Shown here: in pieces, positions 27,246-40,895 of the stretch
Position numbering within the stretch: position 1 is the stretch's first letter
How the letters are laid out: each line of letters begins with the position of its first letter
Virus record (IMG/VR): IMGVR_UViG_3300020020_000010
Location: 1 to 42,351 of that record
Origin: a virus
Length of the DNA stretch: 42,351 nt
Reading direction: 5' to 3' (one strand)
Program-made: the position numbers and the translations under genes
The notes under the pieces: model-generated
Told to the model about the DNA's origin: nothing
The model's input: only the letters and a program-made list of their open reading frames with translations
Database searches by the model: none

Positions 27246-27283
27246 ACGTTAGGACATCATGACCGCCCGGTCAAGTCGTCCTG
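27246..27283 (-). promoter_or_regulatory. Shared promoter/operator, site A
   Basis: On the minus strand TTGACC (27274-27269) is followed by 17 bases and TAACGT (27251-27246). The -35 lies in the palindrome TGACCG-GG-CGGTCA, with TAGGAC and GTCCTG at the outer ends of a 34-bp element (27250-27283). It reads into the cysteine-peptidase-like gene with a leader of about 27 bases. Confidence 0.75.
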
Positions 27284-27451
27284 TTCGTGCGCTCGGCGCT
27301 GCTCCCCAGCGATCCGCAGGTAGTGCGCCATGCAGATCAGTAGCCCCTTGTCGTTGGTCGACAGATCGTTCCAGGGCCGTGCCCTGGGATTGATCTCGCG
27401 ATAGAGCGCATAGGTACGCTTCGCGAGATCCTCGCTGTCATCGTCGTTCAT
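27257..27451 (-). CDS. Small acidic hypothetical protein
   Basis: A 64-residue protein starts at the ATG overlapping the upstream stop (TGATG). The open frame extends upstream, but the overlapping start fits the operon style. It is charged (NDDDSEDLAKRTYALYREIN) with a conserved-looking WNDLSTNDKGLLICMAHYL. Its 3' end lies within operator site A. Function unknown. Confidence 0.6.
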   Translation of the reverse strand: MNDDDSEDLAKRTYALYREINPRARPWNDLSTNDKGLLICMAHYLRIAGEQRRAHEQDDLTGRS

Positions 27452-27738
27452 CAGCTGGGTTCCGATCGTTCGTGCTCCGGCGCGTCGGAGGTTTCCCACT
27501 CAGTCGGCGGGTGACCGGTGATGTCTTCGACACACGTCGTGAGCACCTGCTTCATGAGCTGGAGAAAGCCGTCCTTGATCTCCGCGTGTTCCTTGACAGG
27601 CCCCATCGCGATCGAGCCGATGATAAAGGCGCCATCCATGGTGCCCTCGTTCGCAATGTATGCCGTCCAGAACTTGCCCTCCTTGCGCAGGGCCAAGCGG
27701 ATGCCGATCGTCTTCATCTTTGGTTTGCGTTTCGTCAT
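27451..27738 (-). CDS. Hypothetical protein
   Basis: The 95-residue product begins MTKRKPKMKTIGIRLALRKE, with a likely beta-hairpin at GKFWTAYIANEGTMDGAFIIGSIAM and a helix DGFLQLMKQVLTTCVEDIT (parts at residues 20-45 and 56-75). The acidic tail ends HERSEPS. It overlaps the next gene by TGATG. It belongs to the leftward early operon and no family was recognised. Confidence 0.65.
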   Translation of the reverse strand: MTKRKPKMKTIGIRLALRKEGKFWTAYIANEGTMDGAFIIGSIAMGPVKEHAEIKDGFLQLMKQVLTTCVEDITGHPPTEWETSDAPEHERSEPS

Positions 27739-27740
27739 TG

Positions 27741-27932
27741 CTAACTCCCCAGAAGCAGAATGATCGCCGTGAGCACCGCCACTGCGACGGCGATCAGCAG
27801 CGTTGCCCAGTGCGGGTGTCGATCGACCCAGCCGAGCGGCTCCGGCTCACGCCAGGGCTCCGGCGGCCGGCGCCGCGTCGTCGGGTATATGTCGTAGGGC
27901 GGCGGTGGCGCCGACGGCTGTGGCTTACCCAT
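27741..27932 (-). CDS. Small C-terminally anchored membrane protein
   Basis: The ATG at 27932 overlaps the upstream stop (ATGGGTAA). The 63-residue protein has a Pro-rich cytoplasmic or periplasmic segment (QPSAPPPPYDIYP, RRRPPEPWREPEP) and one C-terminal transmembrane helix at 42-62 (WATLLIAVAVAVLTAIILLL). It was found by reading within a longer frame whose upstream part is the shadow of the zinc-ribbon gene. Role unknown; tail-anchored phage peptides can modify host membrane functions. Confidence 0.6.
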   Translation of the reverse strand: MGKPQPSAPPPPYDIYPTTRRRPPEPWREPEPLGWVDRHPHWATLLIAVAVAVLTAIILLLGS

Positions 27933-28239
27933 CGAACACCAGCAGATCCAACGCGGCAGCCAGCGACCGGTGAGCGGCCATACGATAGCTGTCGGCATCC
28001 TTCGGCGGCCACGGCTTGCCCTTGGTGAGATGACTGTGGATCTCACGCGCCATCGTCTCGACGACGTTGCCCATGGGCGCGTCGACGGTCCTCTCCGGTA
28101 TGGCTGGTCCGCCGCCGCAGGCAGAGCAGACCACCCTGAAGCCGTGGGACTTGGTTTCGTCTTTGATGCGATGCATCTTTGTCGGCATCTTGTGGCCGTC
28201 GTTGCAGGCCGGGCACCTGGGACGCTTCTCACCGTTCAT
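27925..28239 (-). CDS. Small zinc-ribbon protein
   Basis: The 104-residue product starts at the ATG at 28239, with GAGGAG seven bases upstream. A TTG at 28242 is in frame. Cys9/Cys12 (CPAC) and Cys38/Cys41 (CSAC) form a likely four-Cys zinc ribbon. The C-terminal half is helical with HRSLAAALDLLVFDG. The gene overlaps both neighbours by a few bases. DNA, RNA or protein binding cannot be distinguished from sequence. Confidence 0.7.
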   Translation of the reverse strand: MNGEKRPRCPACNDGHKMPTKMHRIKDETKSHGFRVVCSACGGGPAIPERTVDAPMGNVVETMAREIHSHLTKGKPWPPKDADSYRMAAHRSLAAALDLLVFDG

Positions 28240-28420
28240 CAATCGGCTCCTCAGTGGTGTAGTTCGGATCGGTCAGCACCTCTGGCCGATAAACTGACAG
28301 CTTGCGGTCGCGGCACTTGTTGCAGACCCGGCACAGCGCAATGCCGCGGGCGTCGAACGCCCAGCCGCTGCGCAGGCCGGAGCCGCACGGACAGAGATCA
28401 GGGCGCGGGCGCCGGCTCAC
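28229..28420 (-). CDS. Small zinc-ribbon protein (CPCGSG type)
   Basis: This 63-residue protein starts with a GTG that overlaps the upstream stop (GTGA). It has CPCGSG (Cys10, Cys12) and CRVCNKC (Cys30, Cys33, Cys36), giving a compact metal-binding site. The tail KLSVYRPEVLTDPNYTTEEP resembles a conserved small protein family seen in other alphaproteobacterial phages. Function unknown. Confidence 0.7.
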   Translation of the reverse strand: MSRRPRPDLCPCGSGLRSGWAFDARGIALCRVCNKCRDRKLSVYRPEVLTDPNYTTEEPIDER

Positions 28421-28587
28421 TTCACCTTCTCCAGCTTGGCGATAGCGCTATAGATCGCATCGTACTCGCGCTTGTACTTGCGCTCGGCCGCGGCGGTGTC
28501 GTCCTCCTCCCAAGGCCATTCGCCGGCCATCACGAATTGCCCGGCGCGGATCAGCATCTCCCGCTCCAGCTTGGTCAGGCGGCTCAT
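28417..28587 (-). CDS. Small helical hypothetical protein
   Basis: A 56-residue protein starts at the ATG overlapping the upstream TGA. The frame is open further upstream but antisense-like there. It is helical with MSRLTKLEREMLIRAGQFVM and a charged second half, RKYKREYDAIYSAIAKLEKV. No family was recognised. Confidence 0.6.
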   Translation of the reverse strand: MSRLTKLEREMLIRAGQFVMAGEWPWEEDDTAAAERKYKREYDAIYSAIAKLEKVK

Positions 28588-28799
28588 CCTGGCTGCCCTC
28601 TGGCGGCGCGCCGGATCTGCGAAAGGATGTTGAGCTGGCTGCGGCCTGGGCTGTTCTGGCCACGGGCCTGCGACCCCTTGGGCAGGATCGCGCAGAACTT
28701 GTTGTTGACGATGATCTTGAGATGCCGCTTGCCGTTGATGATCGACCAGGGCGCGCCGCAGCTGTCCAATAGCTGCTGAACGTCGTGAGATAGTCGCAT
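28584..28799 (-). CDS. HicA/dsRBD-like small protein
   Basis: The 71-residue protein begins MRLSHDVQQLLDSCGAPW, followed by IINGKRHLKIIVNNKFCAILPKGS and a C-terminal NILSQIRRAARG. The order helix, GxKHxK-like hairpin, strand ending in PxGS, and NxxxxIRRAxR matches the HicA-type double-stranded-RNA-binding fold. The catalytic His of HicA toxins would correspond to His26. There is no HicB partner next door, so it is probably a stand-alone RNA-binding or degraded family member. GGGGAG precedes the ATG. Confidence 0.65.
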   Translation of the reverse strand: MRLSHDVQQLLDSCGAPWSIINGKRHLKIIVNNKFCAILPKGSQARGQNSPGRSQLNILSQIRRAARGQPG

Positions 28800-28819
28800 G
28801 CTCTTCTCCCCGTTGAAGT

Positions 28820-28843
28820 GGGCGGCGCATTGGCGCGCCGCCC
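28820..28843 (-). terminator. Hairpin between leftward genes
   Basis: GGGCGGCGC (28820-28828) pairs perfectly with GCGCCGCCC (28835-28843) around ATTGGC. It lies just past the stop of the 28851-29759 gene on the minus strand. No U-run follows, so it may be a partial terminator or an RNA stabiliser. Confidence 0.6.
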
Positions 28844-28850
28844 GGTTAAA

Positions 28851-29759
28851 TCACCAGCCGAACTTCTCCGCGCAGGTCGGGCCGATGCCGCGCGCGATGC
28901 TTTCGTCGTTGGTCAGCAGCAGCCCGCAGATGGCGCAGGTCGACCACGCCTTGCCGAACGCGACCGCCGCGATCTCCGGGTTCTCGGCGCAGTCCAGCAC
29001 CGCCACCTGCTCGACCGGCGAGCACTCGAACCGGGCGGTGAACTTGCCACCCTTGATGTGGCCAAGCTTCTTGCCCTCCGGGGTCTTGGCGAACAGCATG
29101 CCTTCCCACTGGCTGCCGGCCGAGCCGGGCGTGAACAGGACGTCGACGGCGTTGGTGGCGCGAAGCTTCAGCGGCTTCTTGAACACGCCCTTCTGGCCCT
29201 TGCGCTGCGCCCGCTCGATCGCGTGGGCAAACGCCGCCTCGATCTTGGAGGCGTCGACCGCCGGAGCGTTCTCGACGCGAGCGGTGTTGCGCTCGGCACG
29301 AGCTGCGTCGCGCAGCATGCCGTTGCGCACGACCGCCATCTGCTTGTCGGTCAGCGAGCCGAACTTCGTGATGCCCTGCATGAACGACAGCGCGACGTCC
29401 CAGCGGCCGGCAGTGCGCTTCAGCCATTCCCACTCCGCCGGATGCTCGGCCTCGAACGCGGTCGCGTTCTCAACCCGCTTGCTGTCCTGGCGGGCCTCGC
29501 GCTGCGCCTTCGCCTTGACGCGATCGCCGCGTGAGGTCTTGAACGTCAGCTTGCCGGTGCCGTTGCAGGTGAAGCACGCGCCGTGATCACGGCCGCTGTG
29601 GGTGACGAACCGGCCGCTGCCGGCACACTTCCGGCAGCTCTCGGTGTGCAGGCGCTCCAGGATCGGAGTGAAGCCCTCCGGCACGATTGGCCGCGGGCGC
29701 GGCGCCGGGGCGCCGCCTAAGAGGTCCGAGAGATCGTCGTCGTGAAACTCGTTGGTCAT
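28851..29759 (-). CDS. DnaJ-type zinc finger and DUF6011-like protein
   Basis: The ATG at 29759 carries the shared CAACGGAGCA leader box; an earlier in-frame start at 29813 lies in the operator. The 302-residue protein has two CxxCxGxG units at about 42-67 (CRKCAGSG and CFTCNGTG), as in DnaJ cysteine-rich domains. It also has a central SLTDKQMAVVRNG motif and a C-terminal CAICGLLLTNDESIARGIGP then CAEK, the pattern of the DUF6011 zinc domain. It is likely a nucleic-acid-associated early protein. It is the first gene after operator site B. Confidence 0.8.
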   Translation of the reverse strand: MTNEFHDDDLSDLLGGAPAPRPRPIVPEGFTPILERLHTESCRKCAGSGRFVTHSGRDHGACFTCNGTGKLTFKTSRGDRVKAKAQREARQDSKRVENATAFEAEHPAEWEWLKRTAGRWDVALSFMQGITKFGSLTDKQMAVVRNGMLRDAARAERNTARVENAPAVDASKIEAAFAHAIERAQRKGQKGVFKKPLKLRATNAVDVLFTPGSAGSQWEGMLFAKTPEGKKLGHIKGGKFTARFECSPVEQVAVLDCAENPEIAAVAFGKAWSTCAICGLLLTNDESIARGIGPTCAEKFGW

Positions 29760-29784
29760 CTGCTTGCTCCGTTGCTGATGTCCC

Positions 29785-29822
29785 CTTGTAGGACGCTCTG
29801 ACAGCCCTGTCAAGCGGTCCTA
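29785..29822 (-). promoter_or_regulatory. Shared promoter/operator, site B
   Basis: On the minus strand TTGACA (29813-29808), 17 bases, then TACAAG (29790-29785). The palindrome TGACAG-GG-CTGTCA overlaps the -35, and TAGGAC/GTCCTA flank it in a 34-bp element (29789-29822). The far end covers the stop codon of the 29820-30164 gene. It drives the 28851-29759 gene. Confidence 0.8.
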
Positions 29823-30164
29823 ATGCAGCTTATCCGGGGGGTCACCGCCAGCTGTCGTGATGTCGGGCATCGTTAGATCGCTGGTCCGCATGTACTCTTT
29901 GATCTCACGATCGATCGTCCTGATCAGCGCCAGGACGGTCTTCTTGTCGGAGCCGTCCCTCTGCAGTTTCTCGATTATGTCGAGCATCCACTCGACGCCG
30001 CAGAAGAACGAGGCGCGGCTGGCATAGACCTCAGCCGGCGTGGCCCCGCCCGGTGCACTGGAGGCGACCCGCGCCAGCCAGCCGGCGGCAACGAGCTGGT
30101 GCTTCCTGATCAGCTCGCGCGATAGCCGGCGCAGCTCCTTCTCGTCGAACATCTTGTCGTCCAT
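29820..30164 (-). CDS. Hypothetical helical protein
   Basis: The 114-residue product starts at the ATG that overlaps the upstream stop (TGATG). It is mostly helical: FDEKELRRLSRELIRKHQLV, ASFFCGVEWMLDIIEKL, and VLALIRTIDREIKEYM. The acidic or polar tail ends GGDPPDKLH. It is the last gene before operator site B. No family was recognised. Confidence 0.6.
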   Translation of the reverse strand: MDDKMFDEKELRRLSRELIRKHQLVAAGWLARVASSAPGGATPAEVYASRASFFCGVEWMLDIIEKLQRDGSDKKTVLALIRTIDREIKEYMRTSDLTMPDITTAGGDPPDKLH

Positions 30165-30448
30165 CACCTGAACTCCGATGTCGGGATCGGTTCGAAATAC
30201 TTGCAGGCCGGCCACTCTGGTCTGACGACATGGCCGACCGAACCGGTGAGCTGCTTGTAGATCGCGCAGGCCTTAGTCTTGCGCAGCGTCAGCACGTTGC
30301 CGTGGCGGTCGTAGATCTTGGTCTGGTAGCCGCGATGCAGACACTTGCCGCACGTTGCGCCCCACGGGCCGGTGCCGCTGAAATACGCCATGCCAGGATG
30401 GACGCTGTCGCGGTCTGGCACGCCCTCTAGCTTGGTCATGTGCGACAT
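30164..30448 (-). CDS. Cysteine-rich conserved phage protein
   Basis: This 94-residue protein has GMAYFSGTGPWGATCGKCLH (about 19-38), then Cys61 in KACAIY and Cys81 in PEWPACKYFEP. The four spaced cysteines and the GTGPxGxTCGxC signature define a small zinc-binding family that I recall from many phages of Proteobacteria, function unknown. A GGAG precedes the ATG. The gene is coupled to its downstream neighbour. Confidence 0.75.
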   Translation of the reverse strand: MSHMTKLEGVPDRDSVHPGMAYFSGTGPWGATCGKCLHRGYQTKIYDRHGNVLTLRKTKACAIYKQLTGSVGHVVRPEWPACKYFEPIPTSEFR

Positions 30449-30451
30449 GGG

Positions 30452-30694
30452 TCATTCTCCGCTTGTTACCCGCCCCAGATCGTCACCAATCTCGCGCAAG
30501 CGCCCCATCGCCTTCACCGCCCACGGGTCGCCCCCGACGCGGAAGTTCTCGGCGCGGCTGGCCCGATCAAGGGCGGCGCCGCGATCGGCAAGACCAACCT
30601 TCACTTCGGCGGCGATGCTCTCGATCGCATCGACCTCGACGCAAAAGTCGATTGCAGGATCCGGGTGATGTCCAAAGCGTCCTAGAGTAGTCAT
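30452..30694 (-). CDS. Small conserved phage protein (FGHHPDPAIDF family)
   Basis: The 80-residue protein begins MTTLGRFGHHPDPAIDFCVE, a signature found in small early phage proteins, followed by a helical DAIESIAAEVKVGLADRGAAL. The stop TGA lies three bases before the next start. No biochemical function is known for this family. Confidence 0.7.
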   Translation of the reverse strand: MTTLGRFGHHPDPAIDFCVEVDAIESIAAEVKVGLADRGAALDRASRAENFRVGGDPWAVKAMGRLREIGDDLGRVTSGE

Positions 30695-31437
30695 GGTTGC
30701 CTCCTTGGCTCGGCTAACGTCGGTTGATCCGTGTCGCGGCGTCGGCTTTCGAGTATTTTGACGGCCTGCGTAAGGTCGCGTTCCATCTGCGCTGTGACCT
30801 CAACCGAATAGACAGCATCGGCCGGCGCGTCGAAGTTCTGATCGACCTTCTCGTCGTAAGTCTGCTCGTCCAGGCTCCCATGCAGCGGGTTCAGCAAGTC
30901 GAGCAGCGTTTGGATCGTCTCGCGATCTAGCGCAGGCGGTAACGCCCTGTTCGTCGGCTGATCCGTGTCTTTCAGGAGGGCGAGAACGGCGCTGGCTTTG
31001 CGCCCCCAGACGTGCCGCGCTTCGGGGCATTGGCCTGCTGGGATTAGGCAAGAGTGCGTAAGACAGATGGCCGCGCATTGCTTTGTCCCGTCTGCCTTGC
31101 AAATCGCCTGCGCGATCGCCGCCTCGCTCGGTAACGCCCTGTTCGTCGGCTGATCCGTGCCTTGCGGTGAGAGGAGGGCGTGAACGGCCTTTGCTGCCGG
31201 CAACCAAGTTTGCCAGGGGCCTTGGCCGCGAGTGCTCGCAATAGCCTCCGCGATCTTGATCACATCGGGTGGCGGCGTTAACGCCCTGACTGGGATGGCG
31301 CGGAGGTGGGCGACAACTCTCGTGACTAAATGCGCAGCCGATTTCTCCCCGCGCTGCTCCAGGCCGATGCCAAGCCCTTCAAGCATATCTATGTCTTGGG
31401 CCGCCAGCGCAGTGGCGTCGTTAACGTGCTGTGTCAT
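30691..31437 (-). CDS. Repeat-module protein with TDQPTNRALP linkers
   Basis: The ATG at 31437 overlaps the upstream stop (ATGA); the open frame before it is antisense noise. The 248-residue protein contains at least two related modules. Each runs IAxAI... W/HVWGRKA...AVxALL and ends in a TDQPT linker (GTDQPTNRALP, DTDQPTNRALP, and a last DTDQPTLAEP). One module holds a Cys-rich patch (KQCAAICLTHSC...QCPEA) that may bind metal. The linkers are nearly identical at DNA level. Function unknown; the repeat structure suggests internal duplication. Confidence 0.65.
   Translation of the reverse strand: MTQHVNDATALAAQDIDMLEGLGIGLEQRGEKSAAHLVTRVVAHLRAIPVRALTPPPDVIKIAEAIASTRGQGPWQTWLPAAKAVHALLSPQGTDQPTNRALPSEAAIAQAICKADGTKQCAAICLTHSCLIPAGQCPEARHVWGRKASAVLALLKDTDQPTNRALPPALDRETIQTLLDLLNPLHGSLDEQTYDEKVDQNFDAPADAVYSVEVTAQMERDLTQAVKILESRRRDTDQPTLAEPRRQP
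30937..31159. repeat. Pair of exact 31-bp direct repeats (plus a partial third copy)
   Basis: Bases 30937-30967 and 31129-31159 are identical; both begin CGGTAACGCCC and end GCTGATCCGTG. A shorter related copy lies at 30711-30735. The copies are 192 bases apart, in one reading frame, and encode the TDQPTNRALP linkers. They are best explained as protein repeats, though recombination between them could delete a module. Confidence 0.85.
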
Positions 31438-31838
31438 GGGGCGGATGCCGCTCTCTGCTTGTCGATCGGCCCGATAAGATGCGCAGGCGGGACTGGGATC
31501 TCGTGCGCGATCGACTTCCACAGGTGAAGGCAGAACGGGTGATAGTTGACGTACACCGACTTCGGCGGATGAAACTGGACCACGCACTCGTCTTCGCCCC
31601 AGAACAGATCCTTGACGTAGGACATCTCGGCCCAGTTCGGCGTGCGGTGCTTGATCGAGACGCTGACATGCTCCCACGCATGATCCTCTGGCGTGGGCCC
31701 CGTCGAGATGATCGCCAGCTGCGCGCCGCTCGGGCCCATGATGAGAAACGCCCCCATCAACTTGTCAGCCGGCGTGCTGCCCCATAGCCCCGAGCGCAGG
31801 CGCCCGTTCTCTAATTTCTCTGCGACAGTTATCCTCAT
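31434..31838 (-). CDS. DUF7694-like conserved phage protein
   Basis: This 134-residue protein is the first leftward gene of the divergent control region. The signature HAWEHVSVSIKHRTPNWAEM, VKDLFWGEDECVVQFHPP and YVNYHPFCLHLW recurs in a widespread phage family now annotated DUF7694, with several His/Cys that could bind metal. The predicted promoter places the transcription start at or beside the ATG, so translation may be leaderless. Function unknown. Confidence 0.75.
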   Translation of the reverse strand: MRITVAEKLENGRLRSGLWGSTPADKLMGAFLIMGPSGAQLAIISTGPTPEDHAWEHVSVSIKHRTPNWAEMSYVKDLFWGEDECVVQFHPPKSVYVNYHPFCLHLWKSIAHEIPVPPAHLIGPIDKQRAASAP

Positions 31839-31844
31839 GGCAAA

Positions 31845-31884
31845 AGCGTATCCCCTTGCGATGTGAATCGCAACCCACTAATCT
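31845..31884. promoter_or_regulatory. Divergent promoters sharing one palindromic operator
   Basis: The sequence TTGCGAT-GTGA-ATCGCAA (31856-31873) is a perfect inverted repeat. Rightward: TTGCGA (31856-31861), 17 bases, TAATCT (31879-31884), predicted start about 31891-31893, where the HTH gene ATG lies. Leftward: TTGCGA (31873-31868), 17 bases, TACGCT (31850-31845), predicted start about 31838, the ATG of the leftward gene. Both mRNAs would be leaderless, and one bound dimer would cover both -35 boxes. Confidence 0.75.
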
Positions 31885-31892
31885 GCGCGACC

Positions 31893-32114
31893 ATGAAACC
31901 ACACCCCACCGTTAAGGCCCTGCTTGTGGAGATCGATGAGTTCTGCCGCAAGTCGGGCACCTCCCGCACCGGGTTCGGTCGCCGCGTCGCCGGCGACAGC
32001 CATCTGGTGTCGCGCCTGCGCGGCGGCTCGATGCCGACGCTGATGACGATCGAGCGCATCCAGCGCTACATCCGCACGGTCACGAAGGAGCAGCAGCGGA
32101 TCTGGCGGGACTGA
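31893..32114 (+). CDS. Small helix-turn-helix regulator
   Basis: The ATG at 31893 has no ribosome-binding site but coincides with the predicted transcription start. A GTG 30 bases upstream is in frame but lies in the operator. The 73-residue protein has LLVEIDEFCRKSGTSRTGFG, then RRVAGDSHLVSRLRGGSMPT, the helix-turn-helix pattern of a small family common in alphaproteobacteria and their phages. It is the natural candidate to bind the adjacent TTGCGAT palindrome and control both divergent transcripts. It is coupled to the GcrA gene by TGATG. Confidence 0.8.
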   Translation: MKPHPTVKALLVEIDEFCRKSGTSRTGFGRRVAGDSHLVSRLRGGSMPTLMTIERIQRYIRTVTKEQQRIWRD

Positions 32115-32614
32115 TGTCGGATCCCAGAGCGGTATGGCCCAACGAGCGGATCGAGTACCTGCGTGCGGCACTAAAGACCAATGCCTCGTTACACAGGATT
32201 GCCGACGACATGTCGAAACGGTTCGGCGTGCCGATCTCGCGCAGCGCCATAATCGGCAAGGCGCACCGCCTGGGGGAAGACTTGATGACGCGCGTTACTG
32301 AGCCGCCGCCCGCCAGGAAGAAGCCGGATGGGTCGGCTAGGTCGGCTAGGTCGGCTAGGTCGGCTACACGGCCGAGCAAGCGCAGGCCGGTCGAGCCGCC
32401 ACCGGTCGAGCAGATCCACGAGCCGCCCCTGCCCCCGCCGCCTTTGCTGTTCACCCTGACCGGGCAGCTGACCTTCAACGAGCTGCAGCCCAACAGCTGC
32501 CGCTACCCGTTCGGCGCCCGGCCGCCCTTCATGTTCTGTGGCGTGGTGACGAAGGAGCCGCCGTACTGCGCCGTGCATGCTGAGTTGTGCTTCCCGCGGC
32601 AGCGCCCGCGATGA
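32114..32614 (+). CDS. gcrA: GcrA family cell-cycle regulator homologue
   Basis: The 166-residue protein has an N-terminal HTH with VWPNERIEYLRAALKTNASL and ISRSAIIGKAHRLG (residues 7-54). A Pro/Arg/Ser linker follows, then the C-terminal GcrA signature: FNELQPNSCRYPFG (121-134), FCG (141-143) and YCAVHAELCF (151-160). In Caulobacter GcrA binds RNA polymerase with sigma-70 and activates promoters carrying methylated GANTC sites. A phage copy could redirect that programme or read CcrM methylation on its own promoters. The linker contains a 9-bp tandem repeat encoding Ser-Ala-Arg. Confidence 0.88.
   Translation: MSDPRAVWPNERIEYLRAALKTNASLHRIADDMSKRFGVPISRSAIIGKAHRLGEDLMTRVTEPPPARKKPDGSARSARSARSATRPSKRRPVEPPPVEQIHEPPLPPPPLLFTLTGQLTFNELQPNSCRYPFGARPPFMFCGVVTKEPPYCAVHAELCFPRQRPR
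32332..32367. repeat. Four tandem copies of a 9-bp unit in the GcrA linker
   Basis: GTCGGCTAG occurs at 32332-32340, 32341-32349 and 32350-32358, with GTCGGCTAC at 32359-32367. The unit is in frame and encodes Ser-Ala-Arg (Ser-Ala-Thr in the last), so copy-number changes would alter linker length without a frameshift. Confidence 0.9.
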
Positions 32615-32985
32615 GCATCTCAGTCGCCGAGTATCGCAACCTTGCCAGCGAGCACAGCATGCAGTCGGCGCTGATCGAGCGACTGCATCAGCGCGCCCGC
32701 GTGCCGCTCCTGGCGTTCGCGATCCCGAACGCTGCCAAGCGATCGCCGCGCACCGCCGCCCAGCTCAAGCGCGAGGGCATGCTCGCCGGCGTCGCCGATC
32801 TCTGCATCATGCTGGAGGGCGGCTTAGTGATCTGGATGGAGCTAAAGACCCGCAAGGGTCGGGTGCGGGCGGGGCAGAAGGCGTTCCGGGCGAGCTGCGA
32901 CATGCTCGGCCACCCGTACCTGATGCCGCGGACACTCGACGACGCAATCTGCATGCTGACCAACAGAGGGATCCTATTGCCATGA
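32611..32985 (+). CDS. VRR-NUC domain nuclease
   Basis: The ATG at 32611 overlaps the GcrA stop (ATGA); an in-frame start at 32587 lies within that gene. The 124-residue protein is almost entirely a VRR-NUC fold: AFAIPNAAKR (about 35-44), GVADLCIM with Asp63, WMELKTRKGRVRAGQKAF with Glu77, Lys79 and Gln89. These are the expected metal-binding residues of this PD-(D/E)XK-like nuclease group, which cuts branched or flap DNA. It lies in the replication/recombination operon and may resolve junctions during replication or packaging. Confidence 0.88.
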   Translation: MSISVAEYRNLASEHSMQSALIERLHQRARVPLLAFAIPNAAKRSPRTAAQLKREGMLAGVADLCIMLEGGLVIWMELKTRKGRVRAGQKAFRASCDMLGHPYLMPRTLDDAICMLTNRGILLP

Positions 32986-33230
32986 GCCGACGCAACGAAG
33001 CTGATATGGCGCGCGAGTTTGTCGAGACGCAGAAGGTGACTGCTCGACTGTCGAAGTTTCTGGAGGGCGAGAAGCACATCAGCGTGATCGTGGCGTGCGC
33101 GAGCTGCATGGCGTATTCGCTGTCGCGGATCCCGCCGGCGAACCGCGATGCGGTCATGAAGCTGGTGATGAGCCTGCTGACGGTCGAAGACGAGGCCGAC
33201 ACCAACAAGGGCAAGCCCAATGCCAGTTGA
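32982..33230 (+). CDS. Small helical hypothetical protein
   Basis: The 82-residue protein starts at the ATG overlapping the VRR-NUC stop. It is helical: ADMAREFVETQKVTARLSKF, then SVIVACASCMAYSLSRIPP and NRDAVMKLVMSLL. Three Cys or Met-rich positions lie in the middle helix. It overlaps the next gene by 11 bases. No family was recognised. Confidence 0.65.
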   Translation: MSRRNEADMAREFVETQKVTARLSKFLEGEKHISVIVACASCMAYSLSRIPPANRDAVMKLVMSLLTVEDEADTNKGKPNAS

Positions 33231-35437: not shown

Positions 35438-35441
35438 GCTG

Positions 35442-37733
35442 ATGTCCGTAATGCCGGACTTCAATCCTGACTTCGCGATCGCCTCTGGCTGGGCCGCGAT
35501 GTATCGCGAGGCCGGCCTGCAGGTCATTCCCTGCTACGACCCGAGCGAGGCGCCACAGGCCTGGAAGCGCCCCAAGCTGTCGAGCTGGGTGCCGCTGCAG
35601 AACGATCTGGCGCCGCAATTCACCTGGGACCGCTGGTACGGCCCGGCCGGTGAGCACGCCAACCGCAACAACATGGGGATCATCACCGGGGCCTGCTCCG
35701 GCAACGTCTGGGTGCTCGACCTCGACACCCAGAAGACCCCCCAGGCGGCGGCGTGGTGGGACGCGCTGTTGGCAGTCGAAAACTCGCGGCTCGAGCCGGA
35801 GACGGTGCAGCAGGTCACCGGTGGCGGCGGCCGGCAACTTTTGTTCCGGGCCCCGCCCGGCGTGGTGATGCCAACCAACAAGACCCTGATCGGGGTCGAC
35901 GTCCGCGGGCAGGCCGGCTTCGCGGTGATGCCGCCGAGCCGGCACGAGAGCGGCCGCAACTATGCCTGGGCCCCAGGCGCGGCGCCGTGGGAGATCGAGA
36001 TCGCGATGGCGCCGCCGTGGCTGATCGAGGCGGTCATGGCGCTGGTCGAGGACCACGGCGGCGCCGGCGGTACCCCAGGCGCGCGCACCGCCGACCCAGA
36101 GGCGGCGGTCAATGCGTTCGGCCAGACCGTCGACGGCCGCGAGACGCTGATGCGCAATGTGGTCTGGCGCGACGTGCTGGAGCTGTACCGGGCGGCGCCG
36201 ATCCAGCCGCCGGAGAGCGCCTGGGACCGCCTGTGCGAGGAGAGCTACCTGCGCTACGAGGCCCACGCCGGCGGGCGCGGGTCGATCACCGACCGGGCGG
36301 CCGCCCTGGAGGCTGACGGCCGCGGCCGCACCGAGCACCGCCGGAAGTGGCGGGCGGCGATGCGGCGCTGGGGCCTGAAGCGGATGCAGGACGACGCCGC
36401 CAAGCCACCGCCGGGCGGGGGTGCAGAAACCTCTCAGGGGTCGACAGCGACCTCTCAGGGGTCGGCGGAAACCTCTCAGGGGTCGAGCGACAAGGCCCAG
36501 GCCGACGGGGCGTCCACGGGCGCCAATTCCGCGGGATTTAAAACCACCCCTCCCAACCAGATCCCGCTGCGCAGTGCCTTCCCGATCGACGAGCGCAAGA
36601 TCCCGGTGCGCGACTGGATCGTGCCCGGCCTGTTGCTGCGGCGGACGGTGTCGCTGCTGGTCGCACCGCCAGGATCCGGCAAGTCGCTGTTCACCCTGCA
36701 GGCGGCAATCATGGTCGCGGCGCAGGTGCAGTGGGGCGGCTACTACCCACGGATCTCCGAGAAGGTTCTGGTGATCAATTCGGAGGACGACGCCGACGAG
36801 ATGGCACGGCGGCTGGTCCTGGCGGCCCGTGAGATGGGGGTCGAGCAGACCGCACTGACCGGCCGGCTGCTGGTGGTGGACGCGCCGGAGAGCATCATCA
36901 TCGCCAAGGTCGACGGCCGCAGCAAGGTGGTGGTGCGGACGCCGCTGATCGAGGAGCTGGTCGAGACGATCAAGGTCAACAGGATCGGAGTGATCGTGGT
37001 CGATCCGTTCGCCGAGACATTCGTCGGCGACGAGAACAGCAACAGCGAGGTCAAGTGGGCGCTGGTGCTGTGGCGCGAGATCGCGAGGCGCACCGGGGCC
37101 TCACTGCTGCTGGTGCATCACGCCAAGAAGTACGCGGGCGGGATGGCGGGCGACGCCGACGCATCACGCGGCGGCGGCTCGATAATCGGCATCGTCCGCA
37201 TCCTCATGACGCTGTTCAGCATGACCGAGGACGAGGCGGCCGGCATGGACGTGCCGGAGGGCGAACGCAGCAATTACGTCAGGCTCGATGACGGTAAGGC
37301 GAACTATTCCAAGAAGGGCGACCCGCGCTGGTTCGAGAAGCGGAGCTACACCCTCAACAACAGCACCGGCATCATTCCTGGCGACGAGGTCGCGGTGCTG
37401 GTGCCCTGGGCGCCTCCTGGCGCATTCGACGGCTTCACCGTTCATGACCTGAACCGCGCGCTCGACGTGATCGATGCGGGGCTGCTCGGCACCGACGGCA
37501 GGCCGAGCGGGCAGTTCTTCACGGCGTCGGCGGCCGGCGCGAATGCCGAGCGGTGGGCGGGTCGGGTGCTCACCAGGGAGCTGGAGTGCTCCGAGCAGCA
37601 GGCCAAGAACATTATCCGGGTCTGGCTCAAGAACGACGTCCTGGAGGTATTCGACTATACGGACCCGCTCGTTCGCAAGACCCGAAAAGGCACCCGATCG
37701 GTGCTCAAAAACAGGCCAGGAAAGGCGGTTTAG
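35442..37733 (+). CDS. Primase-polymerase / RepA-type helicase fusion
   Basis: The ATG at 35442 has GGGAGGGG upstream. The 763-residue protein starts with a bifunctional primase-polymerase (AEP) domain: AGLQVIPCYDP, NMGIITGACSGNVWVLDLD with catalytic Asp93 and Asp95, and VTGGGGRQLLF. A disordered linker at 325-370 carries three TSQGS repeats. The C-terminal half is a RecA/RepA-like helicase: APPGSGKS (Walker A, 408-415), GVIVVDPF (Walker B, about 516-523), and LLLVHHAKK (His559/His560). It should prime and unwind phage DNA. No separate DNA polymerase was found, so host polymerase is probably recruited. Confidence 0.9.
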   Translation: MSVMPDFNPDFAIASGWAAMYREAGLQVIPCYDPSEAPQAWKRPKLSSWVPLQNDLAPQFTWDRWYGPAGEHANRNNMGIITGACSGNVWVLDLDTQKTPQAAAWWDALLAVENSRLEPETVQQVTGGGGRQLLFRAPPGVVMPTNKTLIGVDVRGQAGFAVMPPSRHESGRNYAWAPGAAPWEIEIAMAPPWLIEAVMALVEDHGGAGGTPGARTADPEAAVNAFGQTVDGRETLMRNVVWRDVLELYRAAPIQPPESAWDRLCEESYLRYEAHAGGRGSITDRAAALEADGRGRTEHRRKWRAAMRRWGLKRMQDDAAKPPPGGGAETSQGSTATSQGSAETSQGSSDKAQADGASTGANSAGFKTTPPNQIPLRSAFPIDERKIPVRDWIVPGLLLRRTVSLLVAPPGSGKSLFTLQAAIMVAAQVQWGGYYPRISEKVLVINSEDDADEMARRLVLAAREMGVEQTALTGRLLVVDAPESIIIAKVDGRSKVVVRTPLIEELVETIKVNRIGVIVVDPFAETFVGDENSNSEVKWALVLWREIARRTGASLLLVHHAKKYAGGMAGDADASRGGGSIIGIVRILMTLFSMTEDEAAGMDVPEGERSNYVRLDDGKANYSKKGDPRWFEKRSYTLNNSTGIIPGDEVAVLVPWAPPGAFDGFTVHDLNRALDVIDAGLLGTDGRPSGQFFTASAAGANAERWAGRVLTRELECSEQQAKNIIRVWLKNDVLEVFDYTDPLVRKTRKGTRSVLKNRPGKAV
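36429..36485. repeat. 21-bp in-frame triplicate in the primase-helicase linker
   Basis: ACCTCTCAGGGGTCG occurs at 36429-36443, 36450-36464 and 36471-36485, a 21-base period encoding ETSQGST, ATSQGSA and ETSQGSS. Copy-number change would vary the distance between the primase and helicase domains without breaking the frame. Confidence 0.9.
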
Positions 37734-37738
37734 GTGGG

Positions 37739-37984
37739 ATGACAGGCTGGCTGGAAAAGGCTGCGCCATTCGATTTTGGGGTTGGCGCACGAATGGCGCA
37801 AAACGCCCCTGGTGGGCTGCGCCATTATCAAAACCGCACTAACCCAAAATGGAATGGCGCAAAGCGCGCCAATCGCTTTGCGCCAATGGCGCAGCGATCG
37901 AGTTCCATTTTGGGTTCAGCAGTGCGGTTCGCGCAACGGCGCACGAGACTAGGGAAGTTCACAACCGAGGGAGCAAAAGCATGA
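37739..37984 (+). CDS. Doubtful 81-aa ORF across the repeat-rich element
   Basis: An open frame starts at the ATG at 37739, six bases past the helicase stop, and ends with an ATGA overlap to the next gene. The product (MTGWLEKAAPFDFGVGARMA then polar Arg/Asn-rich sequence) has no recognised motif. It lies exactly over the iterated TGGCGCA sites and large inverted repeat, so the open frame may be incidental. The next gene has its own GAGGGAG site. Confidence 0.3.
   Translation: MTGWLEKAAPFDFGVGARMAQNAPGGLRHYQNRTNPKWNGAKRANRFAPMAQRSSSILGSAVRFAQRRTRLGKFTTEGAKA
37762..37943. repeat. Iteron cluster with nested inverted repeats, candidate replication origin
   Basis: TGGCGCA occurs at 37783, 37794, 37855 and 37887 and its complement TGCGCCA at 37762, 37818 and 37879, with a CGGCGCA variant at 37937. 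Within this, TGGCGCAAAGCG (37855-37866) pairs with CGCTTTGCGCCA (37874-37885). Outer arms AACCGCACT and AACCCAAAATGGAA (37832-37854) pair with TTCCATTTTGGGTT and AGTGCGGTT (37903-37929) except for a 4-base bulge. It lies directly after the primase-helicase. Confidence 0.75.
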
Positions 37985-38163
37985 GCGGGCAAGACTTCGG
38001 ACGGCGCAAGAGCCGGGTGATGGTTTTGCGGAGCGAGGCACGCGAGGAGGTCGAGTACCTGGAGCGAAGACTGGTCCGCGCCAGAGCCAATCTGGCGATG
38101 TTCGATCGCATGTGGGCTGAGGTGTTGGCCGAGCAGCAGGAGATGTTCAATGCGGATCGTTAG
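37981..38163 (+). CDS. Small coiled-coil protein
   Basis: The 60-residue protein starts at the ATG at 37981 with GAGGGAG upstream. After MSGQDFGRRKSR it is a single charged helix (EAREEVEYLERRLVRARANL and onwards), probably a coiled coil. It overlaps the next gene by 14 bases. Function unknown. Confidence 0.6.
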   Translation: MSGQDFGRRKSRVMVLRSEAREEVEYLERRLVRARANLAMFDRMWAEVLAEQQEMFNADR

Positions 38164-38767
38164 GCACCTCACGATGTCACCCAACCCAAACCGGTGGGAC
38201 CGTAGTCATGGCACCTACCTCGCCGGGCAGGCCCATATCGCCGGCGCTGATGAGACGGCGACCCGGATGGAGCGCTGGTGGGGCTGTGGGCGGCTCCGCC
38301 TGCTGGTGGGCCCTGAGCTGCGCGAGCGGTTCGATCGGCAGCGCTACCTGTACGCCCAGGCGATCCAGAACGGCGACCTGGAGGCGGTGATGCGCGAGAG
38401 CCGCCGCATGACCGCGGCGTGGGAGGCGCTCGACCGGGCGGCCAAGGAGGCCAAGGCGCCGACGCTCGCGCCCCAGGTCTGGGAGGTGACGCTCGACAAC
38501 GGCACGGTGGCGGCAATTGTCCCCGACATCCACCACGCCCGCGCAGTCACCGCCCAGGGCCGCGCCGTGGCGGTGTACACCCTCGACGAGGTCGGGCGGT
38601 TGCTGTCGAGCTTCCCCGCCCTGGTCAAGGCCAAGCAGGTCTGGCCGGGCGCCGAGGTCGAGCGGGTGACGCGCCCGGTGATCGAGCCGCTGGACGCGAT
38701 CGACCAGCCGACCGGGCTCGATGACCTGTTCCGGGAGGGCGACGGCGATGTTCTCGATGCTGGCTAA
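38150..38767 (+). CDS. Conserved Rhizobiales-phage-type hypothetical protein
   Basis: The 205-residue protein contains MERWWGCGRLRLLVGPELRE, RFDRQRYLYAQAIQNGDLEA and RRMTAAWEALDRAA, a helical signature I recall from alphaproteobacterial phages and prophages. The C-terminal half has mixed strands and helices (QVWEVTLDNGTVAAIVPDIH). A start at 38174 (MSPNPNRWDR) is also possible. It follows the origin candidate in the replication operon. No function is known. Confidence 0.7.
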   Translation: MRIVRHLTMSPNPNRWDRSHGTYLAGQAHIAGADETATRMERWWGCGRLRLLVGPELRERFDRQRYLYAQAIQNGDLEAVMRESRRMTAAWEALDRAAKEAKAPTLAPQVWEVTLDNGTVAAIVPDIHHARAVTAQGRAVAVYTLDEVGRLLSSFPALVKAKQVWPGAEVERVTRPVIEPLDAIDQPTGLDDLFREGDGDVLDAG

Positions 38768-39131
38768 GGTCACGATCGTGGCCGGGCCCGCCCTGGTGGT
38801 GATGGCGCTCGGGCGGCTGCTGCAGCCCGAACCGCCGGCGCCGGTACCGTTGCCGCAGCCCAGGCCGTTCCTGGCCTATGCGTCGGCGCCATTGCCTCCG
38901 TCGGTACCGGGCGGGCTGGTATTCGGGCAGCGCTGGGCGCCGGTGACGGCAGAGCCGGAGGGGCGCACGGTCGTCCCAGATCTGGCAATGCCGATGGGCG
39001 GCGTCCCTGGCGGCGCTGATGAGGCAAGACCGCGGACAAGGCGGAAGACGGGGGGTGCCGATCTCTGCGCACGGCACGGCCTCCGAAAGGTCACGACGCA
39101 GAACGGACGGAGCTGGAGATGCAAGCGATGA
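38748..39131 (+). CDS. N-terminally anchored protein with Cys/His C-terminal motif
   Basis: The ATG at 38748 has GGGAGGG upstream and overlaps the preceding gene's end. The 127-residue protein has a hydrophobic N-terminal helix (MLAKVTIVAGPALVVMALG, about 4-22), which is a signal anchor or uncleaved membrane segment. A Pro-rich stretch and a basic tail, DLCARHGLRKVTTQNGRSWR followed by CKR, complete it. The CxxHGxRKV...WRC motif looks like a small metal-binding knuckle that recurs in phage proteins of this group. Function unknown. Confidence 0.65.
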   Translation: MFSMLAKVTIVAGPALVVMALGRLLQPEPPAPVPLPQPRPFLAYASAPLPPSVPGGLVFGQRWAPVTAEPEGRTVVPDLAMPMGGVPGGADEARPRTRRKTGGADLCARHGLRKVTTQNGRSWRCKR

Positions 39132-39604
39132 ATGGTAACGGTGAACAGGCGGCGATGGGCGACGACGAGCGGGCACGGCAGATGGTCGAGGAGGGGCTCA
39201 ACGCAGTGGCCAGGATCCAGCAGGAGCGTGACAACTGCGCCAAGCAGCTGCAGGTGACGGGGTCGCAGCTGCGCGGTGCCGAGACGGAGCTGGCGGCGCT
39301 GAACCTTGCGTATCAGCGGCTGCTCGGCGAGATCGAAACCTACCGCCGGGAGCGGGATCTCGCGGTGGCGCGCCGCGCCGAGGTCGAGGCGGTGTTCAAT
39401 GCGGCACTGCAGATCCTGATGAAGTACCGCACGCCGACGGTCGCGGAGGAGAACACGCTGCAAAAGGAAACGCCCACCGAGGTGGTGGGCGATCCAGAAG
39501 AGCCGTTGATGTTCTCGCTACCCGGTAAGCAGCGCCGCCCAGATCAGCACAGTCGCGATGAACAGGGCGATCGCGACCGCCTCGACGAGCGTGGCCATAG
39601 CTAA
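39119..39604 (+). CDS. Coiled-coil protein at the end of the rightward early operon
   Basis: The 161-residue protein starts at 39119, or at the ATG at 39128 that overlaps the upstream stop. Residues 30-105 are a long coiled coil (EEGLNAVARIQQERDNCAKQ, GAETELAALNLAYQRLLGEI). The last 35 residues are Arg/Asp/Gln-rich and lie antisense to a tiny membrane ORF and across a terminator-like hairpin for the leftward operon. The C-terminal tail may therefore be accidental read-through of non-coding sequence. Function unknown. Confidence 0.65.
   Translation: MQAMNGNGEQAAMGDDERARQMVEEGLNAVARIQQERDNCAKQLQVTGSQLRGAETELAALNLAYQRLLGEIETYRRERDLAVARRAEVEAVFNAALQILMKYRTPTVAEENTLQKETPTEVVGDPEEPLMFSLPGKQRRPDQHSRDEQGDRDRLDERGHS
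39471..39491 (-). terminator. Terminator for the short leftward operon
   Basis: CGCCCACC (39471-39478) pairs with GGTGGGCG (39484-39491) around a 5-base loop. On the minus strand the stem is followed by TTTCCTTTT, a proper Rho-independent signal. It lies inside the convergent coiled-coil gene and ends the 40759-to-39518 transcript. Confidence 0.8.
39518..39598 (-). CDS. 26-aa membrane peptide
   Basis: A 26-codon ORF starts two bases after the stop of the 39601-39810 gene and ends shortly before the leftward terminator. Nearly the whole peptide is one hydrophobic helix (VEAVAIALFIATVLIWAALL). It has no strong ribosome-binding site, but the tight spacing allows reinitiation. It may be a real small membrane protein. 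Confidence 0.45.
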   Translation of the reverse strand: MATLVEAVAIALFIATVLIWAALLTG

Positions 39605-39810
39605 ACCACCACGCAGTCGTTGAGGATGACGCGCACGGTCTTGCCCGACTTGTCGAGCAAGACCGTCGCGATCTCGATGTCGACAGTGCGCGCGCCGGTC
39701 AGCAGGCGCGCGCGGGTGCCGACCTTGCCATAGCGCGAGGTCTTGACGACCTCGCCATAGCGGTCACCCATCATCCAGCGGTCGGTGTAGGCGGGGATCT
39801 GTACGCGCAT
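39601..39810 (-). CDS. Small beta-rich conserved phage protein
   Basis: The 69-residue protein begins MRVQIPAYTDRWMMGDRYGE, followed by strands (RTVDIEIATVLLDKSGKTVR and VILNDC). The start IPxxTDRWMxGDRYGE is a signature I recall from small early phage proteins. GAGGAG lies just upstream, from the end of the previous gene. The fold is probably a small SH3-like barrel. Function unknown. Confidence 0.7.
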   Translation of the reverse strand: MRVQIPAYTDRWMMGDRYGEVVKTSRYGKVGTRARLLTGARTVDIEIATVLLDKSGKTVRVILNDCVVV

Positions 39811-39811
39811 G

Positions 39812-39988
39812 TCACTCCTCCGTCACGGTGATGATGTCGCCCTCAGACATCGACATGCACGAGCTGATCAGGTCGATGACAGCCTGCGCGATGCGTTCGT
39901 CGGTGGCGTCGTTGTAGGGGATCTTGACGCGATCCAGCACGCCGCCCTTGCCGCTCCAGGTGACGATGGTCTTGGTGGGTTCGCTCAT
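39812..39988 (-). CDS. Small hypothetical protein
   Basis: A 58-residue ORF runs from the ATG at 39988 to the TGA at 39814-39812, with the shared CAACGGAGCA box just upstream. The sequence starts MSEPTKTIVTWSGKGGVLDR and ends SEGDIITVTEE, with a helix around RIAQAVIDLISSCM. It is too short for many gene finders, but the conserved leader box supports expression. No family was recognised. Confidence 0.7.
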   Translation of the reverse strand: MSEPTKTIVTWSGKGGVLDRVKIPYNDATDERIAQAVIDLISSCMSMSEGDIITVTEE

Positions 39989-40015
39989 GGTGTTGCTCCG
40001 TTGGTTTGAGGAATA

Positions 40016-40038
40016 CTCGCAGCCGATCAGGCTGCGAG
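40016..40038 (-). terminator. Hairpin overlapping the stop of the leftward 40027-40320 gene
   Basis: CTCGCAGCC (40016-40024) pairs perfectly with GGCTGCGAG (40030-40038) around GATCA. On the minus strand TATTCC follows, so it is a weak intrinsic terminator or an mRNA stabiliser between two leftward genes. Confidence 0.6.
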
Positions 40039-40320
40039 GTGCTTGCCGCTGCGCGCCACGACGCGCAGCGTGCGGACAGGCGTCACGTTGGTGTGCGCCT
40101 GGATGAACTGGCGCGACAGGTGCTCGCGCACTGCGGCCATGTCGAGCGTCTCGCGCTCGCTCTCGGCGATCGAGAGGCGGAACTGCTCGCCCTCGTAGGA
40201 TCCTGCGGACAGATCCGCGAGCGCTTCCTTGAGTGCCTTCTCACGCAGGTTCAGCTCGGCCAGCTCGGCCTTGAGCAGGCCGTAGGCGTCGATCAGCTGC
40301 TTCAGGTTGGATTTGGTCAT
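40027..40320 (-). CDS. Conserved phage protein with N-terminal coiled coil
   Basis: The ATG at 40320 carries the CAACGGAGCA box. The 97-residue protein has a coiled coil (LIDAYGLLKAELAELNLREK) followed by GEQFRLSIAESERETLDMAA and VREHLSRQFIQAHTNVTPVR. The pattern YEGxxFRxxxxExxRxTLD...AHT is a widespread small phage family of unknown function. It is the first gene after operator site C. The stop lies within a hairpin. Confidence 0.75.
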   Translation of the reverse strand: MTKSNLKQLIDAYGLLKAELAELNLREKALKEALADLSAGSYEGEQFRLSIAESERETLDMAAVREHLSRQFIQAHTNVTPVRTLRVVARSGKHLAA

Positions 40321-40339
40321 GTCGTTTGCTCCGTTGGGA

Positions 40340-40361
40340 CCGTTAATTGCCGGGTAATTAG
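40340..40361 (-). promoter_or_regulatory. Leader element shared with the 40759 gene
   Basis: On the minus strand CTAATTACC, four bases, then AATTAACGG. The same element occurs at 40796-40817 with two differences. Here TAATT/AATTA can form a short stem. It lies in the leader between promoter C and the CAACGGAGCA box. Confidence 0.6.
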
Positions 40362-40375
40362 TGTCCGGTTTGCGA

Positions 40376-40413
40376 GGTATAGGACCGCCTGACAGGGCTG
40401 TCAAGCGGTCCTA
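40376..40413 (-). promoter_or_regulatory. Shared promoter/operator, site C (near-perfect 34-bp palindrome)
   Basis: On the minus strand TTGACA (40404-40399), 17 bases, TATACC (40381-40376). The 34-bp element at 40380-40413 is palindromic throughout: TAGGACCGC/GCGGTCCTA outside and TGACAG/CTGTCA inside, with one mismatched position pair. It drives the 40027-40320 gene. A weaker promoter could also fire rightward, given the symmetry. Confidence 0.85.
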
Positions 40414-40420
40414 TTAGGCG

Positions 40421-40759
40421 TCACTTCACGAACTTCTTGGCGTCGCGCTTGAGTGCCCGTGTCATGCGGCGCTCGACGAAGGCGGTCGCCTCTTCTGCGG
40501 TCTTGACCCGGCCAGGGCGGGTCGAGGCGCCGTAGTGACGGCCGTCGCGGGTGGGATAGCTGTAGACCTCGATGTGACGCAGCGGCTCGCCACCGTAGAT
40601 CCAGCCGCCGGTGGTGCCCTCTGGCAGCAGCTCGACTGTGACGTTCGAGATCTTCCAGCCGTAGCCGACCTCGCGGCCCTGCTTGTCCTTGAAGCCGTAG
40701 TTCTGGTGGCCGCGGGTGGCTTCGCCGTAGCGCTTCTTCATGTAGCGGTGGTCGTTCAT
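40421..40759 (-). CDS. Hypothetical basic protein
   Basis: The 112-residue protein starts at the ATG at 40759 with the CAACGGAGCA box. It has an Arg/Lys/Gly-rich N-terminus (NDHRYMKKRYGEATRGHQNY), a beta-rich middle (YGWKISNVTVELLPEGTTGG, IEVYSYPTRDG), and a basic helix at the end (FVERRMTRALKRDAKKFVK). It is the first gene of the short leftward operon. Nucleic-acid binding is likely from charge, but no family was recognised. Confidence 0.7.
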   Translation of the reverse strand: MNDHRYMKKRYGEATRGHQNYGFKDKQGREVGYGWKISNVTVELLPEGTTGGWIYGGEPLRHIEVYSYPTRDGRHYGASTRPGRVKTAEEATAFVERRMTRALKRDAKKFVK

Positions 40760-40790
40760 TTGTCGTGCTCCGTTGTTGTCAAGCTGTCTG

Positions 40791-40825
40791 ATGGCCCGTT
40801 AATTACCCGGTAATTAGCGGGCCAT
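40791..40825 (-). promoter_or_regulatory. Leader stem-loop with shared TAATTACC element
   Basis: ATGGCCCG (40791-40798) pairs with CGGGCCAT (40818-40825), and TAATTAC (40800-40806) pairs with GTAATTA (40810-40816). The core 40796-40817 matches 40340-40361 at 20 of 22 bases. It lies between the leftward promoter D and the 40759 start codon. Confidence 0.7.
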
Positions 40826-40830
40826 TCCGT

Positions 40831-40895
40831 CTGATAGGACATCCTGACCGCCCTTGTCAAGCCTGATTGACAGCCCAGTCACGCTGTCCTAATAA
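40831..40895. promoter_or_regulatory. Shared divergent promoters/operators, site D
   Basis: Leftward: TTGACA (40860-40855), 18 bases, TATCAG (40836-40831). Rightward: TTGACA (40867-40872), 17 bases, TAATAA (40890-40895). Each contains TGAC-N6/7-GTCA over the -35 and GTCCTA running into the -10, as in sites A-C. The rightward unit serves the HTH gene at 40928 and the leftward unit the 40759 gene. Confidence 0.85.

What the first reader, a model, noticed from the sequence alone, without database searches (positions are those of the whole stretch)
27246..40895. A phage-wide regulon: five promoters with one palindromic operator
Sites at 27246-27283, 29785-29822, 40376-40413 and the divergent pair at 40831-40895 all carry TTGAC(A/C), a TGAC-N6 (once N7)-GTCA palindrome overlapping the -35, 17-18 bp spacing, and GTCCTA entering the -10. 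Site C is symmetric over 34 bp. The match goes beyond sigma-70 consensus, so one dimeric or tetrameric phage regulator probably controls all five. The HTH gene at 40928, next to site D, is the best candidate. Established: overlapping-operator repression in phage switches. Inferred: which protein binds.
Basis: partly seen in the sequence, partly recalled or inferred. Interest (0 to 1): 0.85.

Follow-up and report, generated by a model that had tools for sequence, protein, structure and literature searches.

The report
Phage regulon of self-repressed operator promoters
A soil phage that probably infects rhizobia-like bacteria has five promoters that are themselves binding sites for one small phage repressor, and the same pairing of repressor and promoter recurs, with changing DNA letters, in many related phages.

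Summary
Five promoters (four sites, one of them divergent) carry the same operator. The 34-mer TAGGAC-N4-TGAC-N6-GTCA-N4-GTCCTA occurs four times with 3 or fewer mismatches, and nothing else in the window is nearer than 7. The promoters fit the alphaproteobacterial pattern CTTGAC-N17/18-CTAnnn.

Orthologues in five other phage lineages have the same unit in their own promoter region. Loci fetched by HTH homology alone also have a 34-bp operator of this layout upstream, often with other half-sites (TAGGNC or TACGC), including an isolate, Bradyrhizobium phage ppBeUSDA76-2. A control of 0.96 Mb had no TACGC-type match.

The operator is better read as four GNC boxes forming two abutting 17-bp dyads: upstream arm, -35, spacer, and start of the -10. 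This resembles R-M controller-protein operators. The protein is closest in fold to Aca10, an anti-CRISPR-operon repressor.

Most likely mechanism: dimers bind side by side, cover the core promoter and repress all five units, including the regulator's own. Binding and repression are inferred, not shown. The 31893 HTH protein has its own, different palindrome (31856-31873).

The parts
27250..27283 (-). Site A: 34-bp four-box operator and promoter (CTTGAC 27270-27275, CTAACG 27247-27252) for gene 26757-27212
   Evidence: conserved upstream of the orthologue in G001 and of an operon with the homologue in G013
29789..29822 (-). Site B: 34-bp four-box operator and promoter (CTTGAC 29809-29814, CTACAA 29786-29791) for gene 28851-29759
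   Evidence: conserved in G001 and G005 upstream of the orthologue
40380..40413 (-). Site C: 34-bp four-box operator and promoter (CTTGAC 40400-40405, CTATAC 40377-40382) for gene 40027-40320
   Evidence: G013 unit at 5100 precedes the homologue of the same gene
40832..40861 (-). Site D-: promoter (CTTGAC 40856-40861, N18, CTATCA 40832-40837) with boxes 2-4 and no box 1; drives 40421-40759
   Evidence: conserved in G001, and divergent counterparts next to the HTH gene in G008, G012, G013
40858..40894 (+). Site D+: operator 40858-40891 and promoter (ATTGAC 40866-40871, N17, CTAATA 40889-40894) of the HTH gene (autoregulatory site)
40928..41173 (+). 81-aa Xre-type HTH protein, proposed repressor of the regulon
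   Evidence: Pfam PF20432 above cut-off; AlphaFold2 pLDDT 89.6; best fold match Aca10 7xi5; orthologues linked to the operator
26757..27212 (-). regulon gene A, unknown function (phrog_3754)
28851..29759 (-). regulon gene B, DUF6011 / phrog_4046, unknown function
40027..40320 (-). regulon gene C, 97 aa, unknown function
40421..40759 (-). regulon gene D-, 112 aa, unknown function

Best explanation
The five sites are promoter-operators of one phage regulon. Each is an alphaproteobacterial sigma-70-type promoter used by host RNA polymerase. Its sequence is also a 34-bp operator of four GNC boxes forming two abutting 17-bp dyads: box 1 upstream, box 2 = the -35, box 3 in the spacer, box 4 at the start of the -10. 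The Aca10/MqsA-like HTH protein at 40928 binds as a dimer to one dyad, or as two dimers side by side. By covering the core promoter it shuts off the leftward units A, B, C and D- and its own unit D+, so early transcription is strong at first and damped once the protein accumulates. The sites, promoters and linkage of protein to operator are shown by sequence. Binding by this protein, the two-dimer stoichiometry and repression rather than activation are inferred.
For: Non-chance sites with a clean gap to background. Promoter hexamers and spacing, and an ATG 29-65 nt downstream in the units where one was called in the regulon phages G001, G007/G008, G012 and G013. Boxes 1, 3 and 4 conserved beyond promoter needs in 27 units. 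Compensatory change in the inner hexamer of the central dyad (11 of 16 distinct hexamers, shuffle p = 0.008 for one of three pairs). Orthologous genes keep orthologous sites between G000, G001 and G013. The HTH gene has the unit in its own promoter region in the lineages G000/G001, G007/G008, G012, G013 and G003. Independent test: loci found by HTH homology alone carry tandem 17+17 operators upstream with other half-sites (L164-L166, L169, L171 and the TACGC class), with 0 matches at 4 or fewer mismatches to the TACGC pattern in 0.96 Mb of control phage DNA. Isolate phage ppBeUSDA76-2 also fits: best match 2 mismatches, next best 7. Fold match to repressors Aca10, MqsA, C.Kpn2I, Aca1 and 434. 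Known Aca proteins repress through inverted repeats inside the core promoter (PMC9410906; Aca10).
Against: No binding or expression data. The inner half-sites of the window's phage (TGACA/TGACC) differ from the outer ones (TAGGAC), so the two-dyad reading is clearest in G003 and weaker here. Several HTH-homologue loci have 32-33 bp variants, and no operator was recognised upstream in L167 and L168. G006 and G009 have a site but no close HTH homologue seen; G009 is a fragment. The first and third pairs of the inner hexamer do not covary significantly.
Confidence: 0.78

Rival explanations
1. The 40928 protein works as a concentration-dependent switch like R-M controller proteins: the first dimer at one half-operator helps polymerase, the second represses.
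For: Operator length and box type resemble C.Esp1396I (35-bp OL+OR, contacts to GAC/GTC). The fold search lists C.Kpn2I.
Against: In C systems the upstream dimer recruits sigma. Here the upstream dyad already includes the -35 box, so either dimer would occlude polymerase, and the promoters look strong without help.
Confidence: 0.1
2. The second small HTH protein (31893) or the GcrA-like protein (32114-32614) is the regulator.
Against: 31893 homologues are found only in G000, G001 and G005, while the operator is also in G003, G007/G008, G012 and G013. 31893 has its own covarying palindrome in its promoter: TTGCGATGTGAATCGCAA here, TTGCGGTGTGAACCGCAA in G001/G005. GcrA homologues also occur in G002, which lacks sites.
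Confidence: 0.05
3. A strong early-promoter family with no operator: the repeats are just promoter consensus copied around the genome.
For: The -35, -10 and spacing account for part of the similarity; G003 copies look recently duplicated.
Against: GTCA in the spacer, GNC before the -10 and box 1 upstream are conserved without a sigma-70 reason. Whole half-site classes change together while the layout stays.
Confidence: 0.05
4. The symmetric sites A-C are bidirectional promoters, the palindrome giving a -35 and -10 on each strand. This could hold alongside repression.
For: C+ reads CCTGAC-N17-CTATTA; B+ reads TCTGAC-N17-CTAATG.
Against: Box 1 in several relatives is TTGAC or GGCC, with no reverse -10, yet box spacing is kept. 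Rightward transcripts from A, B or C would be antisense.
Confidence: 0.12

Closest known systems
Anti-CRISPR-associated repressors (Aca10 of Pseudomonas citronellolis, PDB 7XI5; Aca1; Aca2)
   Same: Small HTH protein, dimer in the known cases; inverted repeat lying over the -35 to -10 region of its own operon; best sequence (E 0.0012) and fold match (TM to target 0.80).
   Different: Known Acas are described as controlling one acr-aca operon; here five units. Operator sequence differs. No anti-CRISPR gene is known next to it.
R-M controller proteins (C.Esp1396I, C.Kpn2I)
   Same: Two dimers on a 35-bp operator of GAC/GTC boxes; autoregulation; Xre-type fold.
   Different: No R-M genes recognised nearby; the operator covers the whole core promoter, not its upstream flank; many target promoters.
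Phage 434 / lambda-type repressor-operator systems
   Same: 14-bp TGAC-N6-GTCA core has the size of a 434-type operator (recalled, not tested); back-to-back promoters at site D; fold match to 434 repressor.
   Different: No CI/Cro pair at this site, no integrase recognised, sites dispersed over 13 kb.
Cluster A mycobacteriophage repressor and stoperators
   Same: One phage repressor with many sites across the genome.
   Different: Stoperators are asymmetric and block elongation; these sites are symmetric and lie on promoters.
TgrL of Caulobacter phage phiCbK
   Same: XRE-family regulator of an alphaproteobacterial phage, expressed early, mostly a repressor (PMC10688885).
   Different: TgrL was shown acting on host genes; homology to 40928 was not tested.

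Membership tests
Xre-like HTH superfamily | HTH domain above curated cut-off | tested here: met
   PF20432 27.5 bits against cut-off 25.8
Aca repressors | small HTH protein with inverted repeat inside its own core promoter | tested here: met
Aca repressors | sequence or fold similarity to a solved Aca | tested here: inconclusive
   Aca10 phmmer E 0.0012; Foldseek E 0.0048, TM to target 0.80; HigA2 and MqsA score nearly as well
Aca repressors | operon with an anti-CRISPR gene | not tested
   no anti-CRISPR search was run; neighbours have no assigned function
Aca repressors | represses its own promoter | not testable with these tools
   needs reporter assay
R-M controller proteins | about 35-bp operator of four GAC/GTC boxes | tested here: met
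   GNC-N5-GNC-N6-GNC-N5-GNC over 34 bp in sites A, B and C
R-M controller proteins | linked restriction or methyltransferase gene | tested here: not met
   none recognised among the window proteins scanned
Lysogeny repressor (CI type) | integrase and lysogeny module in the phage | tested here: not met
   genome complete by 127-bp terminal repeat; no integrase in the PHROG scans of nearly all larger proteins
Cluster A stoperator system | asymmetric sites in transcribed regions | tested here: not met
   sites are dyad-symmetric and on promoters

The most novel reading that the evidence does not exclude
A widespread family of small phage repressors in rhizobial-type phages uses one fixed operator layout: two abutting 17-bp dyads that are also the whole core promoter. 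Half-site letters (TGAC/GNCA, TAGGNC, TACGC) switch together with the recognition helix (RR[YW] versus Q[GN]Y). In most homologues found the operator occurs once or twice, but in the lineage of this window and in G003 it has spread to 5-8 promoters, turning a self-limiting operon into a phage-wide early regulon whose members may be host-takeover or anti-defence genes.
Probability: 0.45. Interest if true: 0.65.

Novelty: new variant of a known kind. Interest (0 to 1): 0.55.

Why it matters
It ties a tiny uncharacterised phage HTH family to its DNA code by comparison alone, gives several naturally paired protein and operator specificities for testing recognition rules, and offers a DNA signature that flags co-regulated, functionally unknown early genes in phages of soil alphaproteobacteria. 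A similar regulatory-sequence approach found anti-defence genes in archaeal viruses (PMC11065993).

Tried and rejected
A generic tandem-dyad score (17+17 pair counting) could not separate sites from background in GC-rich DNA, so class-specific patterns with control DNA were used instead. A scan of 84,980 bacterial and archaeal species genomes for the exact 34-mer found nothing, so a host regulon was rejected. Megablast of the region against isolate phages gave no match. One search gave many single exact hits to the 24-mer; most were not followed and are probably chance. 31893 or GcrA as the regulator was rejected on co-occurrence. Rfam and tRNA scans were empty. The first control count for the TACGC pattern covered only 40 kb because of a naming slip; one search replaces it.

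Full report
What was checked. TGAC-N6-GTCA occurs five times in the window against 0.59 expected; one of the five, at 8081, is in coding DNA and lacks the arms. With the arms, the 34-mer TAGGAC-N4-TGAC-N6-GTCA-N4-GTCCTA has four places with 3 or fewer mismatches and none with 4 to 6; shuffles give none.

Promoter anatomy. Each site reads as an alphaproteobacterial sigma-70 promoter, CTTGAC-N17-CTAnnn (N18 in D-; the D+ -35 is ATTGAC). In relatives the downstream letters converge on CTATAT. The consensus itself is from general knowledge of rhizobial promoters. Leaders end in a CAACGGAG ribosome-binding site (GACGGAG at D+) before the start codon of genes 26757-27212, 28851-29759, 40027-40320, 40421-40759 and 40928-41173.

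The phage. The record is complete: the first and last 127 bases are identical. It is a phage with terminase, portal, major head and tail genes, a Prim-Pol/AAA replicase and a GcrA-like protein. The nearest named phage by capsid protein is Rhizobium phage RHph_I3_18 at 62%. That phage has an integrase and a C repressor; no integrase was recognised here, so a lysogeny repressor is not the obvious role.

Relatives. A scan of IMG/VR for the exact 34-mer found sites in G001 (42 kb, close relative), G003, G004 and G005. A shorter pattern added G006-G009, G012, G013 and G014. In these phages the unit sits upstream of open reading frames. Across 27 units with the 25-base spacing, G11 and C13 (box 3) and C21 (box 4) are invariant, G19 is in 26, and G-6 and C-4 (box 1, upstream of the -35) are in 24 and 25. 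Several units were found with the pattern itself, so boxes 2-4 are partly selected; box 1 was required only in the 34-mer scan. The central spacing varies (6 or 7) but box 3 to box 4 does not. In G003 each half is itself a dyad, TAGGACATCTTGACCTA next to TAGGTCATTCTGTCCTA, and there are eight units in 8 kb, near phosphohydrolase and primase-like genes. I therefore read the operator as two abutting 17-bp dyads. In the inner hexamer of the central dyad one of three symmetric pairs covaries (p = 0.008), a modest support for dyad recognition there.

The regulator. The HTH gene 40928 has the unit in its own promoter region in G000/G001, G007/G008, G012, G013 and G003. Orthologous genes keep their sites: A in G000/G001 and, as second gene of the operon, G013; B in G000/G001/G005; C in G000 and G013. 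The strongest evidence is a test in the other direction. Loci fetched only by HTH homology were searched for operators. L164-L166 and L171 have the unit about 0.5 kb upstream of the HTH gene, and L169 a one-mismatch TAGGNC tandem. A sister group with a different recognition helix (GRRTSQGY) has TACGC-N7-GCGTA twice in a row, 34 bp, again placed as -35 to -10, 200-610 bp upstream of the HTH gene in eleven loci at 1 or fewer mismatches, with shortened variants in others. Control phage DNA of 0.96 Mb has none at 4 or fewer mismatches. Over whole records this class has one operator, two in G021, and none in G017 and G025. The isolate ppBeUSDA76-2 has a homologue (52% to the sister group) with TAGGGCCACTTGCCCTA-TAGGGCCAATGAGACTA upstream of its two-gene unit: 2 mismatches, next best 7.

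Fold. The AlphaFold2 model (pLDDT 89.6) is closest to Aca10, HigA2, MqsA and C.Kpn2I, then Aca1 with DNA and 434 repressor; Foldseek E-values are weak (best 0.0048), as expected for a small domain. Aca10 is a dimer that binds an inverted repeat over -35 and -10 (PMC9410881). Every bacterial Aca family tested has an inverted repeat inside the core promoter (PMC9410906). C.Esp1396I binds a 35-bp operator as two dimers, with contacts to GAC/GTC (PMC3758141, PMC4041747).

Mechanism. Shown: sites, promoter fit, gene order, conservation, linkage of protein family and operator. Inferred: 40928 binds; two dimers fill the symmetric sites and one may suffice at D-, which lacks box 1; binding blocks polymerase. 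D+ may also feed the late genes: the order HTH, small genes, terminase is kept in G000, G001, G007/G008 and G012 and no plus-strand terminator-like site was found in between. That step is a guess.

Verdict. The kind of system is known (autoregulating phage HTH repressor on promoter-overlapping inverted repeats). The variant is the fixed two-dyad operator that is the whole promoter, and its spread to five or more units.

Noticed in passing
window 31856-31873: Second palindrome TTGCGATGTGAATCGCAA between the leftward gene at 31838 and the HTH gene at 31893; in G001/G005 it is TTGCGGTGTGAACCGCAA, a compensatory change. Probably a separate operator of the 31893 protein.
   Followed up: partly
window 40785-40825 (minus strand): Long leader hairpin between promoter D- and its gene (-23.1 kcal/mol, z -3.9); the related sequence TTAATTGCCGGGTAATTA lies in the leader of site C but folds poorly.
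   Followed up: partly
window 1-127 and 42225-42351: 127-bp direct terminal repeat, so the record is a complete genome.
   Followed up: yes
window 32114-32614: GcrA-like cell-cycle regulator encoded by the phage (PF07750, E 8.7e-19); homologues in G001, G002, G009, G013.
   Followed up: no
L170, L172, L175, L177, L180, L182-L185, L189, L191: Sister HTH class with 34-bp TACGC-N7-GCGTA tandem operators 200-610 bp upstream.
   Followed up: partly
L200 1337-1370: Bradyrhizobium phage ppBeUSDA76-2 (isolate record) has an HTH homologue and a matching tandem operator; a cultured test bed.
   Followed up: yes
L059 1673-1706, 2294-2327, 3706-3739: Three GACATTGTGAC...GTCACGTTGTC-type four-box sites in a 6-kb contig with no detected homology to the window proteins.
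   Followed up: no
window 36423-36486: Three tandem 21-bp repeats (GCAGAAACCTCTCAGGGGTCGA) inside the primase/helicase gene.
   Followed up: no
window 13015-14334 and 24122-25504: Two tail-fibre-like genes that share related segments with each other's relatives.
   Followed up: no
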